In this document: in pieces, positions 5,334 through 35,641 of the stretch
How positions within the stretch are numbered: the stretch's first letter is position 1
Layout of the letters: every line of letters begins with the position of its first letter
NCBI GenBank assembly: GCA_018268315.1
Contig: JAFDWU010000003.1
Span: forward strand, 62,001 to 126,000
From: Armatimonadota bacterium
GTDB taxonomy: Bacteria > Armatimonadota > Fimbriimonadia > Fimbriimonadales > Fimbriimonadaceae
DNA length: 64,000 bases
Direction of reading: 5' to 3'
The notes under the pieces: model-generated
Seen by the model: the letters and a program-made list of their open reading frames with translations, nothing else
Databases searched by the model: none
Told to the model about the DNA's origin: nothing
Position numbers and translations under genes: made by a program

Positions 5334-5621
5334 TCAGTCCTTCCACTCAGGGTCAACAGAGGTCGCCACGCCAATCGTGGAGATCTTCAATGCAATTTTT
5401 TCGCACTCTTGGCGGGAGGCGAAATGAACAGGCGCCTTGCCAAAATGATGCGCTTCCCACGTCTCCATCGCAGCCTCTTGCTGCGAGCAACGTGTAGCCT
5501 CCATGAGGATGCCAACAACTTCCTCAATGGAATTATCATCGTTGTTGAAGATGGTTACCATATAGCGGCCGGATGTCTTCGGGGTCGCTATGACTTCGGG
5601 TTCAAGCCAAGTCGTACTCAT
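5334..5621 (-). CDS. clpS: ClpS-like Clp protease adaptor, paralogue A
   Basis: A 95-residue protein with the ClpS core: VTIFNNDDNSIEEVVGILM (pocket motif NDD), ATRCSQQEAAMETWEAHHFGKAPVHFA and ECEKIALKISTIGV. It is the first of two adjacent ClpS-like genes, ending two bases before the start of the second, so they are co-transcribed and probably coupled. It keeps the canonical ND pair of the N-degron pocket and so is the better candidate for the classic adaptor; clpA/clpC is not in this window. Confidence 0.82.
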   Translation of the reverse strand: MSTTWLEPEVIATPKTSGRYMVTIFNNDDNSIEEVVGILMEATRCSQQEAAMETWEAHHFGKAPVHFASRQECEKIALKISTIGVATSVDPEWKD

Positions 5622-5698
5622 AAAGAATTCGGTAGATAACCAAGTTATACAACTTCCTTGACGAGACGTGCCAATAAAACGGCTCCTTTACCGGAATT

Positions 5699-7918
5699 CT
5701 AGGCTTTCGCCAGGAATCCTGTAGTGAATAGCAGGATAAGGCCCAGCAGTCCCAAAGCGAGAAAGCCCTGCATTCCTGGCGGAGTGTAGCGAAACTCGAC
5801 AACGTGCTGACCATCGGGAATTTGCACTTCGTGCCAGAAGTCGCCGGTGTCTTCAGTTGGCTTTCCATCGATGAAGGTGCTCCACCCCTTGACGAGGCGG
5901 TCTCTTACCGTCAGCTTGCCGGGACCGGTTACGTTCAGACGAATGAAATCGCTGCCATCGGTGATGTCGGTCACCTCCTTCGACGTCTTGCCGGACTCAA
6001 GAACCGCGCGGCCGGGGCCGCCAATGTTGTAGACAAAGAAGCCGCGCGGATCGCGAGTTGGCTTGCCCAGCCCTTCAATCTCTTGCAGGCTCCAAACCGT
6101 CTTCACACCCGATTGCTGGAGCTTCGGCACGTTGAACCGCGGCTTGAGGAACATCATATTGCCGTTTAGGGCGGGGGCGGGGTCGAAACCTTCGCCCACG
6201 CTCTTCAGAAAACTGACTGTGTCCTTGGAGATTAGCGAGTCGTAGCCCGCAATCTCGTGGATGCCGCTTTGAGCGGCAAGGTTTGGGGCGAGGAGGCTGT
6301 GGGGAACGGCGTCCAGCCGCCACTCCTTGTTCACGATGCCAACCCTTTCCCCGTTCGGCGGACCCTGAACGGGCGCCAGCGGCGAACCGGTAAGAAGCAG
6401 GGAAGCGGACCAGACGGCGGCGGTTGCCGCCGCTACTGCGGGGGCGATCCATGCTTTGCCCTTAACGGCAAAGTACAGCGCGGCAGCCCCAAGGGCAGCG
6501 AAAACGAATGCCGGGCCCGCTTGCTGAATTCCAGTGCGGCTGATGAGGGTGGTCAGCGATTCGTTCGCGCCCGTGACCGTGCGCAGCAAGGCGATTGAGA
6601 GAATGGGAAGCAGCAGCGGCAGCAAGGGAAGATATTTCTTGCTGGCTAGGTCGGGAAGGCGCGCCATTGCAACCCCGGCAAGCACCGCCGCCATGAGGAC
6701 AAACAGGGCCTCTATGCGCGCGGGAGAGCCGGTAGACGACCACCCGGGGATCCAGAAGTAGAACAGCGCATTAAGCGGAGTGCCAAGCGCGAGCAGCAGC
6801 GCCACCAAGCCGATGGCGGCGGCGGGCCATACTCGTCGGTTTCGCCACGGGCAGAGGAGCAGCAGCGCCGCGACAAGCGGGCCGATGGTGATGGCGGACT
6901 CCGCCAGATTTGCCCCGCTCTTCACCGCGGGAACCCAGTAGTTGGAGAACTGGGCGCTGCCTGGGTCGAGCCGCTCGCGCGGGTTTCCGTTGAACATCGG
7001 GGTGGTGAGCAGCGAAAGCTCGTACGGCTTCAGCGCGCTTGCCACGTAAGCCTGATACCCTTCGCCGGTCGGCGTGTTTCGGCGGTGGGATTGGCTTCCA
7101 TAGGCCAGGACGGGACCAAGCTGCGGCATTGCCAGCAGTCCACCCGCGACCAGCGCCAGCAGGGCAAGCGCGATGCGCTTGGCATGCGGAGTTTGCACGG
7201 CGCGAACAACGCCCCAGATTCCCAAGGCAAGGAAGCCGTAGAACACGAACTGCAGATGCCCGGCCAGGATCATCATCGTAAGGCAAAGGCCCAGCGCAAC
7301 CGCGCAGAACCTTGGTTTCCGCGGGCTCTCGGGGTCGAGAAGATGATCGAGGAAATAGAGGCACCAGGGGAGCCATGCGAGGGTGCTGATAACGCTTGCC
7401 AGCCCCGCCCACAGAATGAAGAAGGGCGAAAGGGCGAACGTAACGCCGGCGAGCGCTGCGCCTTCTCTCGGCGCGCCGAGGCGGCGACTTAGCGCGTAAG
7501 CGCCTAACCCGGCTATGGCGAGGTGCAAGTAAGCGAGCAGGGTGATGGCGAAGGCGGTGGGAAGATGAAGGATGCCGACGAGGATGTGGGGCGGGTAGAA
7601 ACCGCCGGATTGCGAGTTGGCGAGTAGCGGCGTGCCGCAAAACTCGTAGGGGTTCCAGTAGGGCATGTGGCCGCTGCCCCACGCCTTGAAGACCATGTCC
7701 CGCCAGCCGAAGAACTGGAGCACGGCGTCGGCTTGTAGGATGTCCCACGGGGTCTCGGGAACGGGGGCGTTCCAGGGCGCGGTCGCGCGGAGCTGGTCAA
7801 ACGGGCCGGCGGCTTGGCCGGTGAGCAGGGGCTTTCCGAGGGGGATGAGGGGGAGAATGAGGAGAAGGAGCCAGGGCCATCGCCTCCGCAGCCAGTCTGC
7901 AATCCCTCCTTCGCGCAC
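5699..7918 (-). CDS. large multi-pass membrane protein, YfhO-like
   Basis: A 739-residue integral membrane protein. It starts with a hydrophobic segment (WPWLLLLILPLIPLG), has a long first loop with QFFGWRDMVFKAW and WNPYEFCGTPLLANSQSG, motifs typical of the YfhO/GT-C-like glycosylation proteins, and then about a dozen membrane spans. A C-terminal extracytoplasmic beta domain (residues about 560-710) precedes a last span. YfhO relatives are implicated in glycosylating lipoteichoic acid or envelope polymers; the substrate here is unknown. The GTG start follows TACCGT by only five bases and has no Shine-Dalgarno, suggesting a near-leaderless message. Confidence 0.82.
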   Translation of the reverse strand: MREGGIADWLRRRWPWLLLLILPLIPLGKPLLTGQAAGPFDQLRATAPWNAPVPETPWDILQADAVLQFFGWRDMVFKAWGSGHMPYWNPYEFCGTPLLANSQSGGFYPPHILVGILHLPTAFAITLLAYLHLAIAGLGAYALSRRLGAPREGAALAGVTFALSPFFILWAGLASVISTLAWLPWCLYFLDHLLDPESPRKPRFCAVALGLCLTMMILAGHLQFVFYGFLALGIWGVVRAVQTPHAKRIALALLALVAGGLLAMPQLGPVLAYGSQSHRRNTPTGEGYQAYVASALKPYELSLLTTPMFNGNPRERLDPGSAQFSNYWVPAVKSGANLAESAITIGPLVAALLLLCPWRNRRVWPAAAIGLVALLLALGTPLNALFYFWIPGWSSTGSPARIEALFVLMAAVLAGVAMARLPDLASKKYLPLLPLLLPILSIALLRTVTGANESLTTLISRTGIQQAGPAFVFAALGAAALYFAVKGKAWIAPAVAAATAAVWSASLLLTGSPLAPVQGPPNGERVGIVNKEWRLDAVPHSLLAPNLAAQSGIHEIAGYDSLISKDTVSFLKSVGEGFDPAPALNGNMMFLKPRFNVPKLQQSGVKTVWSLQEIEGLGKPTRDPRGFFVYNIGGPGRAVLESGKTSKEVTDITDGSDFIRLNVTGPGKLTVRDRLVKGWSTFIDGKPTEDTGDFWHEVQIPDGQHVVEFRYTPPGMQGFLALGLLGLILLFTTGFLAKA

Positions 7919-7945
7919 GTCTTACGGTACCCGGATTGCGGTGTT

Positions 7946-8536
7946 CTAGCCTTTGATGAACGCGATGAGTAGTGCGAAGTCATGACCGTCGGCAGCCCGG
8001 AGCGCGGTGATGTAGGCAGCTCTAGCTTCGCCAGGCTGCACGAGGTCGCTGGAGCCCCACGCGGATAGTGGCCAACCCTGTTGCTCACACAAGAGGTCGG
8101 TGGCTAGGCGTGCAAATCGTCCGTTGCCGTTGACGAACGGATGAATCCAGACCAGGCGATGGTGGAACCGTGCCTTGATTTCATCCGGTGAGTAGGTTTG
8201 CAGTTGTAGCCACGTTTTAGCATCCTCTTCGAGGGTCTTCATCATCGTTGGAATCTGCCAACTCTCACAGCCGATGTTCTTCTGCGTTTGACGGTATTTG
8301 CCCGCCCACTTCCAAGTTCTCCCAAACATTCTTGCGTGAAGCAACCTCAGAGTCGATTGGTCGAGAAGAGACTGCTTGATCTTGCGGCTGCTCTCAGCCC
8401 AGATGATGGCCTCGAGGATGTTACGGGCTTCAAATTCGTTGAGTTCCGCTTGCGTCGTAATCGAAGGAATGAGTCCTGCCAAGTCTTCAGGATCGATGGG
8501 GGTTGCGCCATCGGGCCAACTGAAGTCTATGCCCAT
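7946..8536 (-). CDS. Fic-domain 'mobile mystery protein B'
   Basis: A 196-residue Fic protein with the complete AMP-transfer motif HPFVNGNGRFARL near residue 135-147 and the N-terminal features of the mobile mystery protein B family (DEF-like PIDPEDLAGLIP, then HARMFGRTWKWAGKYR). Fic enzymes usually transfer AMP from ATP to target hydroxyls. It overlaps the HTH partner gene by ten bases, the stop of which lies inside its first codons. The pair behaves like a toxin-antitoxin unit in its organisation, though the physiological role of this family is not established. Confidence 0.88.
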   Translation of the reverse strand: MGIDFSWPDGATPIDPEDLAGLIPSITTQAELNEFEARNILEAIIWAESSRKIKQSLLDQSTLRLLHARMFGRTWKWAGKYRQTQKNIGCESWQIPTMMKTLEEDAKTWLQLQTYSPDEIKARFHHRLVWIHPFVNGNGRFARLATDLLCEQQGWPLSAWGSSDLVQPGEARAAYITALRAADGHDFALLIAFIKG

Positions 8537-8985
8537 AACCTGGAATCTCCCCGTCTGATTATCTCCTCGGCGGTTTCCTCGATCAACTGGTCGAGGGCGG
8601 CTTGTGATATCGCCTGATCCTCCATCGCCATGGAGTGCCCTAATCGCTTCACTTGCGCCCGCGCAAGCTCAATCGCTCGAAGACGAACCATATCTTCGAG
8701 CGGTTGTCTTGGTCGTAGGTAGAAAACGAGGTCGCAGTTCAGCGCCTCGGCGGCTGTACGCAGTCGTTTTAGGGTGATTGATCCATCGACCTCAGCCCGC
8801 TCAATTCTGCTTGCTCCTTGGCGAGTCATACCGAGGCGCGAGCCGAGCGCATCAAGACTCATGGCTAGGGCTTCTCGGACAGTTTGTAACCAGCCGTCCT
8901 GCGGATAGACCGGCGCATGAACGCTTTCAACCGCCAGTTGTCGATCCAGTTGCTGTCTTCTCAGTTTCGCCCGTCGGAAGTCCAT
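8527..8985 (-). CDS. HTH 'mobile mystery protein A'
   Basis: A 152-residue partner of the Fic protein. An XRE-like helix-turn-helix occupies residues about 35-80 (TVREALAMSLDALGSRLGM, then TRQGASRIERAE, LKRLRTAAEALNCDLVFYL), with a C-terminal helical tail. The protein family is known for occurring in pairs with the Fic protein in mobile regions and probably represses its own operon. The start codon lies exactly six bases after a TAGAAT -10 hexamer, so the main transcript may be leaderless. Confidence 0.88.
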   Translation of the reverse strand: MDFRRAKLRRQQLDRQLAVESVHAPVYPQDGWLQTVREALAMSLDALGSRLGMTRQGASRIERAEVDGSITLKRLRTAAEALNCDLVFYLRPRQPLEDMVRLRAIELARAQVKRLGHSMAMEDQAISQAALDQLIEETAEEIIRRGDSRLWA

Positions 8986-8991
8986 ATCACT

Positions 8992-9020
8992 ATTCTAGGT
9001 CAAATAGACTGTTTTGTCAA
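8992..9020 (-). promoter_or_regulatory. proximal promoter of the mobile mystery A/B operon
   Basis: On the minus strand: TTGACA (9020-9015), 17-base spacer, TAGAAT (8997-8992). The predicted start falls on or next to the ATG at 8985. Confidence 0.7.
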
Positions 9021-9024
9021 CAGA

Positions 9025-9053
9025 ATTATTTACATCTATAAATAAATTGTCAA
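9025..9053 (-). promoter_or_regulatory. distal promoter of the mobile mystery A/B operon
   Basis: A second TTGACA (9053-9048), 17-base spacer, AATAAT (9030-9025). TTGTCAA (forward) appears twice, 33 bases apart, so the two -35 regions could also be repressor sites. The surrounding 8986-9140 is AT-rich and otherwise empty. Confidence 0.6.
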
Positions 9054-9140
9054 GATATACGTTGCCTATCGCCTCGGTCTTCCCATCTGCCCGTAGGGCG
9101 ACAACCGCGTAGATGCTTGAAGCCATCGTAAACTCTTACT

Positions 9141-9611
9141 ATGAAGCGGCGGATTGCGGCCCGGGTTGGGGCGAGTTTAGTTGGCTTGCTCGCGCTGGGC
9201 TACTTCCTCACGAGTGTGCAGGTCTACAGAGCCGTCGGGTTCATGGACGAGAACACGGGGTCTTCTTACGGCTACCATCTTTGGCCGGGAAGATTTAAGA
9301 CTGATTCTTGGAGCCGGAAGTCGAGGCTAGAGACCTATCTCGAATCCGCGCATCTTGGACGCCCGATCGAGCATCGCTGGAGCCGCGCTGCTGACACGGG
9401 GAGAACCGCTCTTGGGTGGAGCATCTCGTTTTCCAACTTCGGCCCGCGAGGAATGATGTATTTGCACAACGACGAGGATATGAAGGCATGGATGAACCAT
9501 CACTCGCGAGAGGAGATCATCGGGCTATACGACTTCATGCGTACTCATTCGCGCGCAGAAGGTGTGGATCGCGGGTTCGAGATTTGGCGAGAGGTGTATA
9601 GCTACCGCTGA
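9141..9611 (+). CDS. unknown membrane-anchored protein
   Basis: A 156-residue protein not recognised. It has a short basic N-terminus (MKRRIAARVG) and one hydrophobic stretch (ASLVGLLALGYFLTSVQVY), so it is likely anchored with the bulk outside or is exported. The rest is rich in Trp, Tyr, Arg and His, including SYGYHLWPGRF, SWSISFSNFGPRG and an acidic/helix-rich end (EEIIGLYDFMRTHSR). It lies between the Fic/HTH pair and the SEFIR gene and is divergent from the former, convergent with the latter. No motif indicates enzymatic function. Confidence 0.6.
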   Translation: MKRRIAARVGASLVGLLALGYFLTSVQVYRAVGFMDENTGSSYGYHLWPGRFKTDSWSRKSRLETYLESAHLGRPIEHRWSRAADTGRTALGWSISFSNFGPRGMMYLHNDEDMKAWMNHHSREEIIGLYDFMRTHSRAEGVDRGFEIWREVYSYR

Positions 9612-9690
9612 GGCTTGTCCTATCGGTCATACATCCTCCGAGCCGGCTGCCGATACCGATTCTTATTGGGTTCAACCCCCCTACATTCTA

Positions 9691-11139
9691 TTAGGGAATG
9701 GTTGCAACTTTGTCGAAATCGATTATTCGGCTTACTGGTGTCACATTGTGCCCATACCTAAGATTGCCATAAAACAAGGTTGCCCGTTCGCTCGCATTGC
9801 TCATAAGCAGCTTTAGCTCATCTAAGGTGTCTACTCCGAATAGGCACTTCACTCGCTCGAAATATGCCTTAGATATCATCTTAGTAACCACCGGGACCGT
9901 CCTAGAGTACTTCGCATATACTGAAAGACGCGGAAACCATATGACCGGTCCACCATTCAGGACTGATGCGTAATGCACGAGCAAATCTGCATCAATTAGT
10001 TCATCAAATTCCAGACCGCTCCCTTCACACCGCTGCTTAATGAAATCTGCCGTAATGCTTATTCGCTTCGATCCCATGCGTCTGTTGTGCAAACTGTCCA
10101 GCGACTCGACATACTCGTTAAAAACATTGACTCCATCCGGGTGTAGGTCTCCATGCTCGTAGCGGTAAAAATATGTAGAAGATAGAATCTTGCCTAGTTC
10201 GCTGTAACGACCGCGCCTAACAAATACTGCAACGAGGCATATGAATACCTCGTATACGAAAAACTTGAATTGGTCCAGCGAAAGTGCATACCTAAGCTTG
10301 CTTGTTGGATCATGGAATTGTAATTGTGCAAGCCGTTCCAAGTTGTCATGCAAAGCATCTACGTCATTGCTAGACAGAGGTTGACCAGCTAGAGTTGTAG
10401 CGAAGGAGATAAATCCGTCGCGTAGCGGCCGCATCTGTTCTATAAGCAGCATTACTTCTGAATCCACGTCATCGGCACCAGGGCTCTTCATTCGAAATGT
10501 TTCCAAGTCAATCAAGAGTTGGTCGAAGTAGTCGCCGATAAGAAGGGCACTGTCCCTTCCATCGAACGTAGAACGCTTTGTCGCAAGAAGTAAAGCCGAC
10601 TTAGGCTGAACAGAGACGCCGTCTGTAAGATATGCAGGGATTGGACCTAGAGGCGGTCGCATCTTTTCAGGCTTATCATATATCGTGCGCAGGAGCTTGT
10701 CATATTCAGCTTCGTATTCCCCATCATCAGACAGGTCACAATACATCCGAGAGGCCATGAAAGTGGGTAGATAAGGCTGTCCAACCTCGTCTGTTTCCGA
10801 CAGAATTGGAATGAATTTACTTTGCTCAACACTTTCGTAAACTTTCGCCGAGATTAGTTGCGATTCAGTGCCGACACCGCCGGTTCTTGCGTCTGCCTTA
10901 TCCCTATATGCTTTATCGCATATGACTAGAACCTTGGAAATCTGCGGGTCTTTGACCATCTTCTCCATAAAGGCATATTTGTCATGGCCATGCTTTAGAT
11001 CCCATATGTCCATCACCACAAGGACGCCGTTGCTCATTAGCCGCTCCGCAAGAGCGACTACCCACTGTTTATGGGACTCATTTGACCAACTATAGGATAT
11101 GAATACTTGTACGTTTGAGGCACCGTTCACCACCGACAT
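9691..11139 (-). CDS. SEFIR (TIR-like) domain protein
   Basis: A 482-residue protein. Residues about 10-140 form a SEFIR domain: VFISYSWSNESHKQWVVALAERL, then VVMDIWDLKHGHDKYAFME, KVLVICDKAYRDKAD and GGVGTESQLI, ending KFIPIL. SEFIR domains are relatives of TIR domains; in bacteria they occur in defence or signalling proteins. The remaining 330 residues are mostly helical and unrecognised, a possible sensor. Start set at ATG 11139; the frame continues upstream only through the tRNA-Arg gene. Base composition is clearly more AT-rich than neighbours and codon use less biased, consistent with recent acquisition. Single-gene anti-phage candidate; unproven. Confidence 0.8.
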   Translation of the reverse strand: MSVVNGASNVQVFISYSWSNESHKQWVVALAERLMSNGVLVVMDIWDLKHGHDKYAFMEKMVKDPQISKVLVICDKAYRDKADARTGGVGTESQLISAKVYESVEQSKFIPILSETDEVGQPYLPTFMASRMYCDLSDDGEYEAEYDKLLRTIYDKPEKMRPPLGPIPAYLTDGVSVQPKSALLLATKRSTFDGRDSALLIGDYFDQLLIDLETFRMKSPGADDVDSEVMLLIEQMRPLRDGFISFATTLAGQPLSSNDVDALHDNLERLAQLQFHDPTSKLRYALSLDQFKFFVYEVFICLVAVFVRRGRYSELGKILSSTYFYRYEHGDLHPDGVNVFNEYVESLDSLHNRRMGSKRISITADFIKQRCEGSGLEFDELIDADLLVHYASVLNGGPVIWFPRLSVYAKYSRTVPVVTKMISKAYFERVKCLFGVDTLDELKLLMSNASERATLFYGNLRYGHNVTPVSRIIDFDKVATIP

Positions 11140-11173
11140 TATAACCTGCTGAGTGAGCCGGATGGACGTTGAT

Positions 11174-11249
11174 TGGCACGGCTGAAGGGACTCGAACCCT
11201 TGGCCTCTTCCTCCGGAGGGAAGCGCTCTATCCACTGAGCTACAGCCGC
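11174..11249 (-). tRNA. tRNA-Arg, anticodon CCG
   Basis: Minus-strand cloverleaf: acceptor GCGGCTG/CAGCCGT, D stem GCTC/GAGC with the loop AGTGGATA, anticodon stem CTTCC/GGAAG around CTCCGGA (anticodon CCG, reads CGG), T arm AAGGG-TTCGAGT-CCCTT, discriminator G, encoded CCA. A TAGAAT lies upstream as possible -10. Confidence 0.95.
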
Positions 11250-11278
11250 GCGACTGATCTCATTCTATCCAAACAAAG

Positions 11279-11325: not shown

Positions 11326-13947
11326 TTAGAAACCGCCGTAGACTGCCTTCATCTCTTCAGGCGTCAGCTTCAGTTTCGAAACCGTAATAAACCCGAACTC
11401 CGCCTTCACGATATCCCGCGAGGCTTGGTCGTTCCAGCACCCATCTACCATCGGCCGAATGCCGAACAGCAGGGAGAGCAGGTTTCCGCCGCCCGCCGGG
11501 GCAGGGTTCTTCACGCCCTTCAGAATGCTCTCGATCCGCTTGCGCGAGGCCGAAAGATATTCCGCAGTGTGGGTGTCCGAATGCGGGATGGCGGCGTCGA
11601 TGTTGTGGGCCAGACGGCGCAGCGCCACCGGAGCGGTCCATGCAAGGTCCGTCTTCGATTCAAACGGTCCGTTCAGCTTCTGATCCATCGTGTCCAGATA
11701 GGTCATCTGCAGCGACCGTCGGGTTGCGCCGATCGAAAGCGGCTTCTTCGAACCGGACATCAGCTCGCGCCAGACGCCGTTCGTCACGTCGTCGGTCAGG
11801 TCCGAGACCGTGTAAGCCTCGCCGCCTCGCGCTTCGGCGTCCATCAGGGTTCGCAGCTTGGTTTCGCTGAACAGCCGGCCAAGCACGAACTTCGGTCCGA
11901 AATTGCCAACCGCCAAGCTGCCGCCGGATCCCAGCGTGTAAAGCAGTTTCGGATCAAGCAGGCTCTTCGGCATTTCCGCCTCTGGGCTTAGCAGGAACCG
12001 AACCGCGCGCTGCTGAACTGCCTTCGGCACCGGAATGTTGGTGTTTCCACCTCGGCCAACGTGAAGGTTGGTCGTCACTACGCCGCCGACTTCTCGGGTT
12101 ACGTGGAAAAGCTCCAAGATGTACTGAAGCGCGGTCATCGAGAACACGTCCTGCGCCAGGTCGTAGTTATCGCCGAACTTGCCGGTTGCCGGCAAGATCA
12201 TATTGCCCACGCGCTGCAGGTTCTTCAGGCCAAGCCGCGCGGCGGCAACGGTGTCGCTGCCAACGCGCTCCATCTCTTCCGTCGGGTCGAGAGGGTTATT
12301 GTAGTTGCCAAAGCGCAGATACGGGTTCGTTGCCTGGCGACCGGCGATGGAATCCAAAGTCGAGACTTCTTCCTCCGGCGTCCGCGCACCTGTAATCGGC
12401 TTATAGCCCCACTCGATTGCGAACTTGTCGTAATCGCCGATGTGGCGCGCAAGCGGCACTCCGTCACCCGGCTGGGCAACGTAGTTGAAGCGCGCGTAGT
12501 CCATGATCGAGTTCGTGATGCCGTATCGGGCAACGAACTTCGGATCTCGAAGCTGATTTACCGTGAAGTAGGAGTTCGCCTTGAAGTTATGCTCAAGGCC
12601 AAGCGTGTGGCCGACTTCGTGGCAGACGGTGTATTCAAGGCCTTGGTTAATCGCCTCATCCGAGAACGGCATCTTGCTGAACTTGGGATCAAGCGGCCCA
12701 ATCTGGGTGAATGCCCAATCTTCAACGAGCTGGGTCATGCCATGGAACATGATCACGTGGGCGTTGATAACCTCGCCGCTGCGCGGATCGACCACGTGAG
12801 GGCCGTAGGCGTTTTCAATATCCAGCGGCGTCCAGCGGATGACGTTGTAGCGCGCATCCTCCGGGCTCCAGTTCGGATCTTCCTTCTCGGTCGGCGCATC
12901 CTTGCAGATGATCGCGTTCTTGAATCCTGCCTGTTCGAAGGCTGGGTTCCATCCTTCTACACCGCGCTTCAGCGCGGCTCGATACTTCTCCGGCACCTCG
13001 CGGCTAAGGTAGAAAACGATCGGCTTAACCGGCTCGCTAACAGCGGCATTAGGATCCTTCTTTTCCAGCCGGAAACGGTGGATAACATCCTTATAAGTAG
13101 CGCGCTGGCTCTTGCCGCCATAAATGGCGACGGTATTCGCGAAGAAACCCACGCGGTCATCGCGGTAACGCTGCATCATCGGCTTCTCCGGAAGGAGGTT
13201 CAAGCTGAAGTGGACCTTGAATGTGCTGGTTTCGGGTGGGCCCGCTTGGGCGGCGAACGGGTTCGAGGCCATCGAAGCGCCCGTCATCACAACACTGGAT
13301 TCGATGTTCTGCGGAAATGCGGTTACGCGGTCCAAATAGCTTCGGCTCGGGTCCATGTTCATCCGCAGGGCAGCTCGGCTCGCGCCTTCGATTCCGCCTC
13401 CCATCAGGAGGCCGGTCGCATCTACAACTACCGACTTTTCGCCTTCAGAATCAATTCCGAGGGTCCCCAAAATGGGCGCCACGTTGTTGATGGCGATGCC
13501 ATCGGCGATCGCGCCGGTAGCCTGGCTCTCAACCGAGTAATCCATCGAGCGGATAAAGATGCGGTTCTCGCGTCGCTCAAATCTTATTAGGCGATCATAA
13601 AGATGCGCGCCTGGCCACGCGGTGCCGCCGGAGACTTCCGAAAGCTCCGCGCTCCACAGCATGTCTCGGCCGAGCATGTTATCAGGGATTTCCCAGTAGA
13701 CCTTGTCGTCCTTGCGGTGGACCTTGAACAGCCCCTCTTGGGTCTTGAAATCCGCCGTGATGAGGTCCTTGTACGGCCGATACTTGCTCTCCTTCTTCGG
13801 CGTTGGCTGCTGCGCTGGTTGCGTTGGAGCGGATTTAGAGTCTCCGGTCTTCGGCGGCTCCGGCGTAGTTTGGGCGAACGCGAAGCCCGTGCAGACGAGC
13901 AGAAGGGCAGTGGCTCTTAGCTTGGAGAATTTGGGCATTATTTGCAT
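11326..13947 (-). CDS. exported metzincin-like zinc metalloprotease (DUF5117/DUF4953 type)
   Basis: An 873-residue secreted protein. The signal peptide is LRATALLLVCTGFAFA, followed by a Pro/Lys-rich linker. A long N-terminal domain (about 50-350) matches the DUF5117/5118 class with SMDYSVES and FHFSLNLLPE-like segments; the protease core has HEVGHTLGLEH, the HExxHxxGxxH zinc motif, followed by a Met-turn-like SIMDYARF. The C-terminal half is helical. Start at ATG 13947 (AGGACAAG before it); an ATG nine bases downstream is possible. These proteases are widespread in Bacteroidota and related groups; substrates are unknown, probably peptides or proteins in the envelope or outside. Confidence 0.88.
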   Translation of the reverse strand: MQIMPKFSKLRATALLLVCTGFAFAQTTPEPPKTGDSKSAPTQPAQQPTPKKESKYRPYKDLITADFKTQEGLFKVHRKDDKVYWEIPDNMLGRDMLWSAELSEVSGGTAWPGAHLYDRLIRFERRENRIFIRSMDYSVESQATGAIADGIAINNVAPILGTLGIDSEGEKSVVVDATGLLMGGGIEGASRAALRMNMDPSRSYLDRVTAFPQNIESSVVMTGASMASNPFAAQAGPPETSTFKVHFSLNLLPEKPMMQRYRDDRVGFFANTVAIYGGKSQRATYKDVIHRFRLEKKDPNAAVSEPVKPIVFYLSREVPEKYRAALKRGVEGWNPAFEQAGFKNAIICKDAPTEKEDPNWSPEDARYNVIRWTPLDIENAYGPHVVDPRSGEVINAHVIMFHGMTQLVEDWAFTQIGPLDPKFSKMPFSDEAINQGLEYTVCHEVGHTLGLEHNFKANSYFTVNQLRDPKFVARYGITNSIMDYARFNYVAQPGDGVPLARHIGDYDKFAIEWGYKPITGARTPEEEVSTLDSIAGRQATNPYLRFGNYNNPLDPTEEMERVGSDTVAAARLGLKNLQRVGNMILPATGKFGDNYDLAQDVFSMTALQYILELFHVTREVGGVVTTNLHVGRGGNTNIPVPKAVQQRAVRFLLSPEAEMPKSLLDPKLLYTLGSGGSLAVGNFGPKFVLGRLFSETKLRTLMDAEARGGEAYTVSDLTDDVTNGVWRELMSGSKKPLSIGATRRSLQMTYLDTMDQKLNGPFESKTDLAWTAPVALRRLAHNIDAAIPHSDTHTAEYLSASRKRIESILKGVKNPAPAGGGNLLSLLFGIRPMVDGCWNDQASRDIVKAEFGFITVSKLKLTPEEMKAVYGGF

Positions 13948-15531: not shown

Positions 15532-16947
15532 GTGCTTGAAGCCTTCAAATCCCGCTTGGCAGAGCGCCGGTTGATACCGGAAGGTACGCGTGTGCTGGTT
15601 GGCTTCAGCGGCGGGCGCGATTCAACTTGCCTTGTGCACTTGATGAAGCATGCGGGCATTGATATGGTGGTGGCCCACCTGCACCACGGTCAGCGCCCGG
15701 AAGCCGAGCGGGAAATGCAGCTCTGCGAAGCGTTCTGTAAAGAGCTAGACGTGCCGTTCCTTTCTGGCCGCGCCGACGTGCCTCGAATTGCCGCTGAGCG
15801 CAAAATGGGCTTGGAAGAGGCGGGCAGGGAAGCCCGCTACGCGTTCTTCGAGCAAGCCGCCCATTCGATGCAGTGCGGCCTCATCGCCACCGCTCACACC
15901 TCGACCGACCACGTGGAGACGGTGCTGTTGTTCCTTGCTCGCGGGGCGGGGCTCTCGGGGTTATCGGGCATCGCAAGGAAGCGCGGCAATATCATCCGGC
16001 CACTGCTTGATTTCTCACGGGCAGACACCTTGGAATACTGCAGGGAGCACGGGCTGTGGTTTCACGATGACCCGGCAAACGAGGATATTTCGTTTACTCG
16101 CGCGCGGATTCGCCATCGCATCCTGCCCGAGTTCGAGTCGATTAACCCGGGTTTTGGCCGCGCGGTGATGCGCCTTTCGGAGCTGGTGAGGGAAGAAGAT
16201 GAATTCCTGGATGCCAGCGCCACCCACCTGCTTTCGCGTGCGGAAATTCCTTTAAACGGCGATTTGCGCTTCCTCACCATCAATTTGGAAGCGGCTTTTG
16301 ATTCGCACGTCCTGCGCTCGTCGGCGTCACTGCTGGTTCGCCGGGCATTGCGGCTGCTGGCGGAAGCGCTTGGCGCAAATCTGACTTTTGATCAAAGCCA
16401 ATCGATCATTGAGCGGCTTATGGCGGGCGAGAAGGGAAGCATCACTACGGAGGGCGGCGAAGTGGTTTTCGAGTGGGACGTGAGCCAGCTTCACGCACGA
16501 ACCGTCAGGGTTGAGGAAATCCTTCCAACCCGGCTCCCTTTACCGGGCGAGATTAGCAGCGAGGTTTTCGGCTGGCGTATCAATTTGATTCAAGGCGCCG
16601 GCAAGAAGCCAGGACCGCAGCGCGCTTCGCTAGAAGCGGTCATCGATCGCGAATTATTGCGCGGTCACTTGAGGGTGCGAAGCTGGAGCGCGGGCGATCA
16701 AATTCAGCCGCTTGGCTTCAATGGAACTAGAAAAGTCGCTGATTTGCTTTCCGAAGCGAAGCTCACGGAGGCTGCGCGCAAGCGGCTGCCGATACTTTGC
16801 GACGATGAGGGTCCTATCTGGGTCCCGAACATATGTCTCTCCCAGCGCGTTACAAGTAGTGAAGGCGGCGAAAGCTGGTTTACTGCTCAACTTCTGCCGA
16901 TTAACGGGCTGACTGGGCATAATATGGAAACCGCTGCCGATTATTAA
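15532..16947 (+). CDS. tilS: tRNA(Ile)-lysidine synthase
   Basis: Converts C34 of tRNA-Ile(CAU) to lysidine, so it reads AUA. The 471-residue product has the PP-loop SGGRDST near 29-35, HLHHGQRPEAERE, GLIATAHTSTDHVETVL, and RPLLDFSRADTLEYCREHGLWFHDDPANEDISFTRARIR split across the catalytic face, then a C-terminal domain with the typical RxxGDxxxPLGxxGxxKVxDL pattern (SWSAGDQIQPLGFNGTRKVADL). GTG start, possibly leaderless. Essential in most bacteria. Confidence 0.95.
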   Translation: MLEAFKSRLAERRLIPEGTRVLVGFSGGRDSTCLVHLMKHAGIDMVVAHLHHGQRPEAEREMQLCEAFCKELDVPFLSGRADVPRIAAERKMGLEEAGREARYAFFEQAAHSMQCGLIATAHTSTDHVETVLLFLARGAGLSGLSGIARKRGNIIRPLLDFSRADTLEYCREHGLWFHDDPANEDISFTRARIRHRILPEFESINPGFGRAVMRLSELVREEDEFLDASATHLLSRAEIPLNGDLRFLTINLEAAFDSHVLRSSASLLVRRALRLLAEALGANLTFDQSQSIIERLMAGEKGSITTEGGEVVFEWDVSQLHARTVRVEEILPTRLPLPGEISSEVFGWRINLIQGAGKKPGPQRASLEAVIDRELLRGHLRVRSWSAGDQIQPLGFNGTRKVADLLSEAKLTEAARKRLPILCDDEGPIWVPNICLSQRVTSSEGGESWFTAQLLPINGLTGHNMETAADY

Positions 16948-16999
16948 GCGTACCGATTCTTAGCGCTAGCGAGAATCGCGTAGGCTAGAGAGATAACGT

Positions 17000-18931
17000 T
17001 TGAGCAAGACCATCCGAACACTACTGCTATTTGTCACGATCATCGTGGCTTGCCTTGGGCTCATCACCCTCATCGGACCTTCGGGCCCGCTCTCGCAGGG
17101 AAGACCCAAGCAGCTCGCCGTTTCCGAAATCTATCAGCGAGTCGATTCCAATTCGATTGCTGAAGCGACCTGGTCCGGTACGACCCTTGAGGGCGAACTT
17201 AGGGATCACACCAAATTTGTTGCCGAGGTACCTGACGCCAATTCCAGCGCGGGCCAAGATCTTAGCCAGAAGCTGCGAGCCGGTGGGGTCAAGGTAACGC
17301 TGAAATCGCAAGGAATGGGCCCGAACCTGCCATCGATCATTTCGATGCTGGCGTTCCCGATCATCTTCTTCGTCATCTTCTACTTCTTCTTCCTGCGACC
17401 ACAAATGATGGGCGGCAACCAGGCTTTGAACTTCGGGCGCAGCCGCGCAAAGCGGGCGGGCGAGACGAATATCAAAGTCACCTTTGACGACGTCGCCGGT
17501 ATTGAGGAAGCCAAGCAAGAACTTTTCGAGATCGTCGACTTCCTGAAGAACACCAAGAAGTACACCGCGCTTGGCGCGAAGATTCCCAAGGGAATCCTTC
17601 TGACCGGCCCTCCCGGCGTTGGTAAGACTCATCTTGCAAGGGCGATTGCCGGCGAAGCGGGCGTACCGTTCTTCCACATCTCCGGTTCGGACTTCGTTGA
17701 AATGTTCGTCGGCGTTGGCGCGGCCCGTGTAAGAGATTTGTTCGAAACCGCCAAAGCTCATCGCCCAAGCCTTATCTTTATCGATGAAATCGACGCGGTC
17801 GGCCGCCAGCGTGGCGCAGGCCTCGGCGGCGGTCACGATGAGCGCGAGCAGACGCTTAACCAGCTTCTGGTTGAGATGGACGGCTTCGACCCCAACAGCG
17901 GCGTTATTCTCATCGCCGCAACGAACCGCCCCGACGTACTCGATCCGGCGATTCTTCGACCTGGCCGATTCGACCGCCAAATCGTAGTCGATCCGCCTGA
18001 CGCCGAGGGTCGAGAGCAGATTCTTCGCATTCACGCAAAGAACAAGCCGCTTGACGCGAGCATCGATCTTGGCGTGCTCGGCCGCAGGACTCCGGGATTC
18101 ACCGGCGCGGACCTTGCCAACATGCTGAACGAAGGCGCGCTACTTGCCGCCCGACGAGGTCACAGCCGAATTTCGCAGGATGATCTCGATGAAGCGCTCG
18201 ATCGCGTAATCGCAGGGCCGCAGAAGCGAAGCCGCGTTATCGACGAGCGTGAGCGAGAGCAGATTGCTTATCACGAGGCTGGCCACGCGGTGGTTGGAGA
18301 GTTGCTTACGAAAACGGATCGCGTCCACAAGGTCACTATCTTGCCGCGCGGACGTTCGCTTGGCGCAACCTGGCAGCTTCCGGATAAGGATAAGTATCTG
18401 GTGTCCAAAGATGAACTTTTGGAAGACATCACGGCGCTTCTTGGCGGAAGAGTTGCCGAAGAACTGGCCTACAACGACATGACGACCGGCGCGAGCAACG
18501 ACCTCGAGCGCGTTACCGCGATCGCCAGGGCAATGGTTTGCAACTACGGCATGAGCGAGAAGCTTGGAACGTTGGCGCTTGGTAGAAGCTCTCACAATCC
18601 GTTCCTTGGCAGAGATTTCAACGAAGAGCGTAATTACTCGGAGGACATCGCCCGGCAGATCGACGAAGAGATTCGCAGCATCGTCGATACCTGCTATCGC
18701 GATTGCAAGGAAATCCTGATCCAGAATCGCGAGAAGCTTGACGCGGTGGTCAAGGCCCTGCTTGAGCGTGAAACGCTCGGTAGGGAAGAGTTCCTTGCCG
18801 TTCTGAACGGAGAGCCAATGCCTGAGGCCAAGGTGAAAGCTGATTTCCCGAGCCCGGTTGCGGAGCCGCGTGAGACCGAATCGCAGTCGAAGCCGATTGT
18901 GCCACCTCGGTTCGAACCCGGCCCTGCATAA
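17000..18931 (+). CDS. ftsH: ATP-dependent membrane zinc metalloprotease FtsH
   Basis: Degrades misfolded membrane proteins and short-lived regulators. 643 residues: first span at 6-27, extracytoplasmic domain, second span at about 111-131 ([13 protein letters not shown]), AAA+ module with [22 protein letters not shown] and the pore-loop region [17 protein letters not shown], then the M41 protease with HEAGH at 425-429 and the third ligand in NDLERVT. TTG start at 17000; no clear ribosome binding site. Downstream of tilS as in many genomes (tilS-hpt-ftsH), here without hpt between. Confidence 0.96.
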
Positions 18932-33388: not shown

Positions 33389-33594
33389 CCCGCGCATCGT
33401 GAGGTCCGGGGTTTGCCATTGAACTTGCGTGACCGTCTTCTCCGTCCAGTCGGCACCCCACGCACAATTCTGCTACAAATGCGTGCGTGGTGCCGCCCCA
33501 TTCAAATTGGCCTGCCCTGTAAATAAGACCTAGCCCCCTATGTGGTCCTCTTTTATGGTCGAATGATCGCGTGCAGCAAGAAAATTGAAACAAG

Positions 33595-33624
33595 CCGACA
33601 AACGACCTCCACATTGGTTATACT
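33595..33624 (+). promoter_or_regulatory. promoter of the accessory cassette
   Basis: CCGACA (33595-33600), 18-base spacer, TATACT (33619-33624); transcription start near 33631, consistent with translation from 33683 or 33701, not from the frame's earlier ATG at 33542. Confidence 0.45.
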
Positions 33625-33700
33625 GTTACTTAGGGTAGGGTTCAGAAGTGCTCAGCTTAATGAGACAAAGCCTCTGTACCATATGCCGCATAGGAATCTA

Positions 33701-35641
33701 ATGCCGAACAACAACAACGCAACCCGTTTCGTGACCGATGGCTCTCAGGGCCCTGTCTTGGATTACAACGTCCCAGAGCCAACGACCTATTTTGGAAGCA
33801 TGTACTTCCAAATCAACGTTAAGGATATGGTCGCCAGCAACCAAGTTCTTAAGACGAAGTTCGCAGGCAAATGGAGAGAAGTCTTCAGGGACTTTGTGGC
33901 GCTGCCGTTCACTGGCAAGCAAAATCTCCTCTCCATGCTTGAGCCGGTCAGCCAAAGAGTCGCGGCAGCTCTTACAAGGGTCCTTGAGTATGGTCCAGCC
34001 ACAGCTCCGCCAGCCGCGTTCTCTACATCCGCGGCACGCACCGTGACGACCAAAACGGCGGCAACTGCTGCGCTCCAACATCCGCTCACTGATGAGGAGC
34101 TTTACTACGTTATCTCTAAGCTGGTATTTCTACCCGTCGGCTTTGAAGGATTTGCGAGTATTCGCCGCAAAATGTACGGACTCGGCTCCGCAAATTCAGC
34201 TACGCACGAGGTCACGACGGCGTACACTCTTCCTGGCAATATCGCTATCAAAGATGAGCTTCTCCAGTTCACATACGGACAAGTGCTTAACGGTCTTGAC
34301 TACAACCATTTGGCAGCTAGAATACTTGAAGGTAACTTCCTCGCGTTGATGATGAGGCTTGGCCGTTACTATCACTTTACGGCCATACCAATTCCCAGCG
34401 AAATCACACCAAAAATCGCAATCGTCGAGAAGTATAAGTTATCAAATTTTCTGGGGAATTATGGGGCAGGCCGGACGGTTTCAACGTTTTCCCTTCTTCC
34501 AGGAGAAAAGACAAAGCTGTCTATAAAGACCTTCAAAAAGACGACCCTGGACTCAAAGCAGTCGAGCAGCATATTGGACTCTTATTGTAAGGAGAGCGCC
34601 GATGATTTTGAAGACACAGTTAACAAAGAGCGAGGCGATAAGCACTCGCACCAAGACAAGCTAGACTGGCACGTCAGTGTAAGCGAGGACTTGGACTTTG
34701 GTTTCTCAGACACAAAGATTGATGCTGGCGTCGCTGGAAGCAATGCGAATCAGCGCGAAGATATGTCCAAGACCATTACGAATAGTATCACTAAACACGC
34801 CCAGAAAGCATCGTCCAAGCGTGATGTCAATATCAACAGCACGTACGAGAACAAAGAAGAGTCCGGTACAGAAACCTCGACTGAACGGGAAATCGAAAAC
34901 ATTAATGTGAGCAGAACCCTGAACTTCATCTTCAGGCAGATTAATCAAGAGTATCTCTCATTGCTCCATTTGATTGACGCACGAATTGTCTATACCAACG
35001 GTCTGCCTGGTTCATATGTGGAGTGCTCGGTACAGGACCTGGGGACTCCCGAAAGGATTGGTGACTTTCTCAAGAATATCTTTGTTACGGAAACGGCTTC
35101 AATCGCGGTCATGAAATCAATTTGTAATCACCTCTGTTTCATTAAGGACTACACTGGGGAGTTTCAGTCGTTTCTTGAACGACAAGATGAGGATGTGGCC
35201 AACCCGGTGATACCAGCCGAACCCTTGCACATGAGCTATATTCGACAGCGAAGAGATCTATTCCTGCCTCCCGCAGATTCGACCAAACACTTTCCAAACA
35301 CGTTCATTAGTTCGGATGGTCAATTAGTGAGGACGGTCACCGGTATCATTGTCTCCGCTACAACGACGGTCCTGCGAACAGATGGCCTTATTGTCGAAGC
35401 GCTACTTGGAAGAGGGGACGCCCTGGACACCTACTCCCACGGACTTCAAGATGAGTCGGTAAGGCAAAAGGCACTCGCCAATGACAAAGTTGCGCTTGCT
35501 AACCAAATTATTAGTAGTGGTGAAGCAGATAAGGGAGCACTGTACGCAGAACTGTTTCCCAACTGTCCCATGTCTGTATGTTGTTGCTGTGGCTTAAAGG
35601 ATAAGCCGTCGGATCCGAAGACTGAGGGTGCTCATGGCTGA
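33701..35641 (+). CDS. unrecognised accessory protein with coiled middle and C-terminal Cys cluster
   Basis: Not recognised. Starts at ATG 33701 (AGGA before it; ATG 33683 also possible), about 647 residues, no signal peptide or membrane span. First part: globular, with YFGSMYFQINVKDM and a helical region to about 130; then an Ala/Thr-rich linker (about 110-135). Middle (about 245-400): LLPGEKTKLSIKTFKKTTLDS, a long helical charged stretch rich in Asp/Glu/Lys/Ser/Asn with repeated ESADDFEDTV, SKTITNSITKHAQKASSKRD and ETSTEREIENINVSRTLNF, likely an elongated helical bundle. End: CCCC inside PMSVCCCCGLKDK near the last 20 residues. Composition is poorer in GC than its neighbours. Overlaps the DUF4329-like gene by eight bases. 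Confidence 0.75.
   Translation: MPNNNNATRFVTDGSQGPVLDYNVPEPTTYFGSMYFQINVKDMVASNQVLKTKFAGKWREVFRDFVALPFTGKQNLLSMLEPVSQRVAAALTRVLEYGPATAPPAAFSTSAARTVTTKTAATAALQHPLTDEELYYVISKLVFLPVGFEGFASIRRKMYGLGSANSATHEVTTAYTLPGNIAIKDELLQFTYGQVLNGLDYNHLAARILEGNFLALMMRLGRYYHFTAIPIPSEITPKIAIVEKYKLSNFLGNYGAGRTVSTFSLLPGEKTKLSIKTFKKTTLDSKQSSSILDSYCKESADDFEDTVNKERGDKHSHQDKLDWHVSVSEDLDFGFSDTKIDAGVAGSNANQREDMSKTITNSITKHAQKASSKRDVNINSTYENKEESGTETSTEREIENINVSRTLNFIFRQINQEYLSLLHLIDARIVYTNGLPGSYVECSVQDLGTPERIGDFLKNIFVTETASIAVMKSICNHLCFIKDYTGEFQSFLERQDEDVANPVIPAEPLHMSYIRQRRDLFLPPADSTKHFPNTFISSDGQLVRTVTGIIVSATTTVLRTDGLIVEALLGRGDALDTYSHGLQDESVRQKALANDKVALANQIISSGEADKGALYAELFPNCPMSVCCCCGLKDKPSDPKTEGAHG

What the first reader, a model, noticed from the sequence alone, without database searches (positions are those of the whole stretch)
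7946..11250. Small island with SEFIR protein and Fic 'mobile mystery' pair ending at tRNA-Arg
A Fic/HTH pair, an orphan membrane-anchored protein and a SEFIR protein lie between core genes, next to tRNA-Arg(CCG). SEFIR is a TIR relative used in immune-type signalling; the SEFIR gene is visibly AT-richer than its surroundings. The C-terminal 330 residues are unrecognised and could be a sensor.
Basis: partly seen in the sequence, partly recalled or inferred. Interest (0 to 1): 0.6.

Follow-up and report, generated by a model that had tools for sequence, protein, structure and literature searches.

The report
SEFIR anti-phage gene beside a tRNA
A bacterial chromosome carries a horizontally acquired copy of a known one-gene anti-phage defence (bSEFIR, a suspected NAD+-destroying suicide enzyme) just behind a tRNA gene, and relatives show that its supposed 'sensor' half is also fused to other kinds of enzyme domain.

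Summary
The SEFIR gene (9691-11139, -) encodes a full-length bSEFIR protein, a known single-gene anti-phage family (PADLOC bSEFIR E 5e-102; PHROG 11745 E 7e-127). Its C-terminal 300 residues are therefore not 'unrecognised'; they match full-length homologs across many phyla and in P2-like prophages. Only this gene is compositionally foreign (GC 46.6% against 57.4 +/- 2.6%). The Fic/HTH pair is the common 'mobile mystery A/B' cassette with near-host composition and no association with SEFIR. No integrase or duplicated tRNA end was found, and the surroundings are rearranged relative to relatives. The most interesting new point: profile searches find the C-terminal half fused to non-SEFIR N-termini in three other genomes of the phylum (two CAP12/TIR-like, one DUF4062-like), while SEFIR domains elsewhere carry TPR, HEAT or NB-ARC partners. 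That two-way shuffling supports an effector (N) plus portable sensor (C) reading. Papers read here say SEFIR depletes NAD+ and senses major capsid protein. Verdict: a new member of a known kind; modest interest.

The parts
9691..11139 (-). bSEFIR gene (482 aa)
   Evidence: PADLOC bSEFIR E 5.1e-102 over residues 9-480; PHROG 11745 E 7.3e-127; PF08357 E 4.5e-17
10669..11115 (-). SEFIR (TIR-like) effector domain, residues 9-157
   Evidence: Pfam SEFIR/TIR_2; PDB 5y8e E 7.8e-35; AF2 model against 5y8e Z 20.4, 144 residues, rmsd 2.1
10864..10866 (-). codon of Glu92 in the GVGTE motif, candidate catalytic glutamate (inferred)
   Evidence: invariant in all 16 aligned full-length homologs; GVGxE motif seen in many more loci
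9694..10599 (-). all-helical C-terminal module, residues 181-482, proposed infection sensor
   Evidence: AF2 model of this half alone, pTM 0.86; found fused to other N-terminal domains in L010, L014, L016
11174..11249 (-). tRNA-Arg(CCG); its 3' end lies 34 nt before the SEFIR start codon
   Evidence: ARAGORN
7946..8536 (-). Fic protein, mobile mystery protein B (separate cassette)
   Evidence: TIGR02613 247 bits; PADLOC candidate PDC-S04 E 1.8e-24; motif HPFVNGNGRFAR
8527..8985 (-). HTH protein, mobile mystery protein A (partner of the Fic gene)
   Evidence: TIGR02612 145 bits
9141..9611 (+). 156-aa orphan with hydrophobic N-terminus, convergent to SEFIR; no shown link to it
   Evidence: no Pfam/NCBIfam/PHROG/PADLOC hit; one 30% homolog in 291 genomes of the phylum
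7919..7945 (.). 27-nt junction between yfhO-like gene and Fic gene; rearrangement boundary
   Evidence: five relatives have ftsH upstream of yfhO here

Best explanation
The finding is a horizontally acquired bSEFIR gene: a single-protein abortive-infection system with an N-terminal SEFIR domain (TIR-like NADase) and a C-terminal helical sensor. Proposed mechanism: the C-terminal half binds a phage component made during infection (probably a structural protein such as the major capsid protein). The SEFIR domains then assemble and cleave NAD+ at a site that includes Glu92, and the cell stops growing or dies before phage release. Shown here: family membership over the full length, the domain layout, invariant Glu92, foreign composition, patchy cross-phylum distribution, presence of homologs in prophages and beside CBASS, and independent shuffling of the two halves. 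Inferred: NADase activity, the trigger, the assembly step, expression by read-through from the tRNA promoter, and that this copy works. The Fic/HTH pair and the orphan are unrelated neighbours.
For: Full-length profile matches. 15 full-length homologs from many phyla, 30-36% identical in that alignment, with FISYSW, D44, GxDK and GVGxE invariant or nearly so. SEFIR fold match to 5y8e Z 20, IL-17RA/ACT1 assembly Z 14, SPARTA TIR Z 13, SARM1 TIR Z 12. Homologs sit between replication and portal genes of P2-like phages and in a record with P2-type capsid genes, on plasmids and beside CBASS cyclase, E1-E2 and SAVED nuclease genes in L154. Module shuffling. Foreign composition. Tree discordance. 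Literature: SEFIR listed as NAD+ depletion with an abortive phenotype (PMC12322248; PMC12774641; PMC12926258); SEFIR listed as sensing the major capsid protein (PMC10884400; PMC11364771).
Against: No experiment on this protein. Identity to any homolog is at most 37% and its branch is long, so specificity or even activity may differ. The original bSEFIR papers (Millman 2022; Stokar-Avihail 2023) were not read (the first is not held), so mechanism is quoted second hand. Expression is inferred only: no promoter-like site between the tRNA and the start codon.
Confidence: 0.8

Rival explanations
1. The four genes form one functional defence island or one multigene system, with the Fic/HTH pair or the membrane protein regulating or executing the SEFIR response.
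For: Physical adjacency; both Fic (PDC-S04) and SEFIR have PADLOC models.
Against: The Fic pair and orphan have host-like GC while SEFIR does not. No SEFIR homolog locus searched carries relatives of P0002-P0004 (tblastn over 136 loci). Of 12 genomes with mobile mystery B over cut-off, only this one has full-length bSEFIR. Mobile mystery A/B pairs stand alone on plasmids. Orphan and SEFIR are convergent.
Confidence: 0.06
2. A site-specific integrative element entered at the 3' end of tRNA-Arg(CCG) and has since decayed, leaving SEFIR (with or without the other genes) as remnant cargo.
For: The SEFIR start codon is 34 nt from the tRNA 3' end, and the composition break coincides with it.
Against: No integrase, no direct repeat of the tRNA 3' end, no other mobile genes. 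In four relatives the tRNA sits behind a nuoF-like gene; here it does not, so the tRNA itself lies in a rearranged context. Nothing SEFIR-like lies at this tRNA in 12 relatives.
Confidence: 0.2
3. The SEFIR protein is a decayed or repurposed relative, for example a signalling adaptor without NADase activity.
For: Long branch and low identity. Eukaryotic SEFIR domains act as adaptors (general knowledge).
Against: Reading frame intact and full length; Glu92 and all other invariant SEFIR motifs kept.
Confidence: 0.1

Closest known systems
bSEFIR anti-phage system (PADLOC PDLC03957; named in Millman et al. 2022)
   Same: Same single-gene layout: SEFIR domain plus ~300-residue C-terminal half, matched over 9-480
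   Different: At most 37% identical to any homolog found here; behind a tRNA with no prophage genes seen nearby; activity untested
Prokaryotic SEFIR domain structure 5y8e/5y8f
   Same: SEFIR domain, phmmer E 7.8e-35, model Z 20
   Different: The solved chains hold only the SEFIR domain; no solved relative of the C-terminal half was found by sequence
TIR NADase immune effectors (SPARTA TIR-APAZ, SARM1, CAP12/Pycsar TIR)
   Same: Related fold of the N-terminal domain; probably the same NAD+ chemistry (works-like)
   Different: Belong to other families; regulated by other partner domains
Mobile mystery protein A/B pair (TIGR02612/TIGR02613)
   Same: Both genes over curated cut-offs, usual order A then B overlapping by a few bases
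   Different: Nothing unusual; the Fic motif has Asn at the usual Asp/Glu position, as in three plasmid members checked

Membership tests
bSEFIR | N-terminal SEFIR domain | tested here: met
   PF08357 63.2 bits, cut-off 23; fold match Z 20
bSEFIR | Full-length match including the C-terminal half | tested here: met
   PADLOC bSEFIR residues 9-480, E 5.1e-102; C-terminal half aligned with 13 homologs
bSEFIR | Single-gene system without an obligate conserved partner | tested here: met
   Different neighbours in the annotated homolog loci; no gene of the alleged island recurs
bSEFIR | Conserved candidate catalytic glutamate | tested here: met
   Glu92 invariant in 16 of 16; its catalytic role is inferred
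bSEFIR | NAD+ depletion and abortive phage defence | not testable with these tools
   Needs bench work
bSEFIR | Activation by phage major capsid protein | not testable with these tools
   Reported for SEFIR in PMC10884400 and PMC11364771, not for this protein
Mobile mystery A/B | Both models over curated cut-off in adjacent genes | tested here: met
   145/122.6 and 247/124.4 bits
Canonical AMPylating Fic toxin-antitoxin | HPFx[D/E]GN[G/K]R active-site motif (as given in the abstract of PMC7479194) | tested here: not met
   Motif here is HPFVNGNGR: Asn at the Asp/Glu position; the same Asn in three plasmid members
Canonical AMPylating Fic toxin-antitoxin | [S/T]xxxE[G/N] inhibitory motif in toxin or partner (recalled from general knowledge) | tested here: not met
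   No match in P0002 or P0003
tRNA-borne genomic island | Integrase gene next to the tRNA | tested here: not met
   None among the genes annotated by Pfam between 4 and 22.5 kb
tRNA-borne genomic island | Direct repeat of the tRNA 3' end at the far boundary | tested here: not met
   No convincing copy between 4 and 11.2 kb
tRNA-borne genomic island | Occupied site here, empty site in relatives | tested here: inconclusive
   No gene of the alleged island at 36 relative loci, but gene order around the tRNA is not conserved and all relatives are of other genera

The most novel reading that the evidence does not exclude
The C-terminal half of bSEFIR is a portable phage-sensing module that defines a wider family of anti-phage proteins. 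The same sensor is plugged onto SEFIR, CAP12/Pycsar-TIR-like and DUF4062-like N-terminal domains, so proteins now filed apart (bSEFIR, PDC-S60-like, TIR effectors) share one trigger, perhaps the major capsid protein.
Probability: 0.4. Interest if true: 0.6.

Novelty: new member of a known kind. Interest (0 to 1): 0.38.

Why it matters
As a gene it adds one divergent bSEFIR to a known defence family in a lineage where it is rare. The part that could matter more is the shuffling of its two halves. It turns 'what does the uncharacterised half of bSEFIR do?' into a direct experiment: if a CAP12/TIR-like or DUF4062-like protein carrying this half is triggered by the same phage proteins, the half is a transferable sensor. 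The case also warns that a tRNA neighbour plus AT-richness need not mean a tRNA-integrated island.

Tried and rejected
Duplicate of the tRNA 3' end as attachment repeat: none convincing. Integrase nearby: none. Association of SEFIR with the Fic pair or the orphan in other genomes: none. Close relatives of P0001 in IMG/VR by single-sequence search: none; the C-terminal profile found two. Fold of the C-terminal half: modelled alone (pTM 0.86). Foldseek gave no PDB match with E at or below 0.001, and VIA-align only Z at or below 8 to helical-repeat and designed proteins, within the noise stated for helical models; no fold name is claimed. Viral structure library with the full model: nothing at E 0.001. 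DUF4062 and TIR-like relatives of L010 and L014 on plasmids: tblastn hits covered almost only the N-terminal part, and one viral scan with L010 found nothing, so how widespread the alternative fusions are is not known. The original bSEFIR paper is not held.
Full report
What is there. Between a yfhO-like membrane protein gene (5699-7918, -) and a Met-zincin metalloprotease gene (11326-13947, -) lie a Fic gene, an HTH gene, a convergent 156-aa orphan, a SEFIR gene and tRNA-Arg(CCG). The SEFIR reading frame opens at ATG 11139, 34 nt after the tRNA. The longer mechanical ORF overlaps the tRNA and is not credible.

Composition. I compared the four genes with 35 other genes of the window. SEFIR stands out: GC 0.466 (about 4 sd low), GC3 0.484 (about 3.7 sd low), and a codon score of -0.136 against 0.130 +/- 0.074. 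The Fic, HTH and orphan genes have normal GC (0.552-0.569) and only mildly low codon scores. The AT-rich stretch is therefore one gene long, not a four-gene island.

Identity of the SEFIR protein. It matches PADLOC bSEFIR over residues 9-480 (E 5.1e-102) and PHROG 11745 over 10-475 (E 7.3e-127). NCBIfam has no model that matches. Solved structures match only the SEFIR domain (5y8e, 5y8f). Fourteen relatives came from the species collection, from Planctomycetota, Myxococcota, Bacteroidota, Chloroflexota, Omnitrophota, Nitrospirota, Chlorobiota, Pseudomonadota and Kiritimatiellota (phyla as printed). In an alignment of 16 full-length proteins the invariant residues include F13, S15-W18, D44, G51, D53, G88-G90 and E92. 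By analogy with TIR NADases, E92 in GVGTE is the candidate catalytic residue; this is inference.

Where homologs live. Homologs lie between replication and portal genes in P2-like phages (Klebsiella phage ST15-OXA48phi14.1; Escherichia phage 500465-1, where only the first third aligns well) and in a Pseudomonas luteola record with P2-type capsid genes. Others are on plasmids. One IMG/VR contig has a full-length homolog beside CBASS cyclase, E1-E2 and SAVED nuclease genes (L154). Another has one beside a SIR2-domain gene and a phage Rha gene (L155).

Descent. In a tree of 23 full-length proteins the window copy joins a Planctomycetota copy (93/97), while the copy from the window's own family (G166) joins the P. 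luteola plasmid copy (96/94). Branches are long, so the exact sister is unsure, but the mix of phyla at short distances elsewhere in the tree shows transfer. In the window's phylum 14 of 291 genomes have any match, and only G000, G166 and G080 were found with both halves.

Two separable halves. AlphaFold gives a SEFIR domain at 9-157 and an all-helical remainder (mean pLDDT 75.5, pTM 0.59). The SEFIR part matches 5y8e (Z 20.4), the IL-17RA/ACT1 assembly (Z 14.3), SPARTA TIR (Z 13) and SARM1 TIR (Z 12). The C-terminal half folds well alone (pTM 0.86) but no clear structural relative turned up. Searching the phylum with the C-terminal profile gave six genomes. Three are bSEFIR. The other three (L010, E 3.6e-29; L014, E 1.0e-20; L016, E 3.0e-19) show no SEFIR domain by profile even with filters off. 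L014 and L016 begin with a CAP12/Pycsar-TIR-like domain (E 4.9e-5 and 1e-3, just under Pfam's cut-off) and L010 with a DUF4062-like domain (E 2e-4, also just under; PADLOC PDC-S60 E 1.9e-30). Conversely, SEFIR domains without this half carry TPR (L002), HEAT (L015) or weak NB-ARC (L007) partners. This two-way exchange is what one expects if the N-terminus is the effector and the C-terminus the sensor. L014 lies next to a PifA-like KAP NTPase gene.

Mechanism. Papers read here list SEFIR as NAD+-depleting with an abortive phenotype (PMC12322248, PMC12774641, PMC12926258) and as recognising the phage major capsid protein (PMC10884400, PMC11364771). I take the window protein to work the same way: sensing by the C-terminal half, assembly of SEFIR domains, NAD+ cleavage, abortive infection. 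None of these steps is shown for this copy.

The Fic pair. These are mobile mystery proteins A and B, over cut-off, with two promoter-like sites just upstream. The same pair stands alone on plasmids. Only 12 of 291 genomes of the phylum exceed the B cut-off, and none but this one has a full-length bSEFIR. The Fic motif is HPFVNGNGR, with Asn where canonical AMPylating Fic proteins have Asp or Glu; three plasmid members share it. It is a separate cassette.

Is it an island at a tRNA? There is no integrase and no convincing repeat of the tRNA end. In five relatives (L112, L113, L115, L117, L118) tilS, ftsH, yfhO and clpS follow one another in one orientation. In the window, tilS-ftsH (15532-18931, +) is separated from yfhO-clpS and turned round, so the left edge of the 'island' is a rearrangement junction. 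In four relatives tRNA-Arg(CCG) follows a nuoF-like gene (my identification from sequence); this genome's copy of that gene has no tRNA in the 1.2 kb behind it. None of the four genes appears at 36 loci of relatives around yfhO, the metalloprotease or the tRNA. Acquisition and rearrangement are supported; tRNA-directed integration is not.

Verdict. The point worth following is the portable C-terminal half.

Noticed in passing
L010, L014, L016 (G241, G149, G140): Relatives of the bSEFIR C-terminal half are fused to DUF4062-like or CAP12/TIR-like N-terminal domains instead of SEFIR.
   Followed up: partly
window 5334-7918 and 15532-18931: The tilS-ftsH-yfhO-clpS order of relatives is broken and partly inverted in this genome.
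   Followed up: partly
window 33542-35641: 699-aa ORF with low GC (0.486) and a low codon score; no Pfam or PADLOC match.
   Followed up: partly
window 8992-9053: Two tandem near-consensus sigma-70-like promoters upstream of the mobile mystery A gene, the nearer one ending 6 bases before its start codon.
   Followed up: no
L154: IMG/VR contig with a full-length bSEFIR next to a CBASS operon.
   Followed up: partly
window 9141-9611: Orphan protein with a single 30% homolog (G004) among 291 genomes of the phylum.
   Followed up: partly
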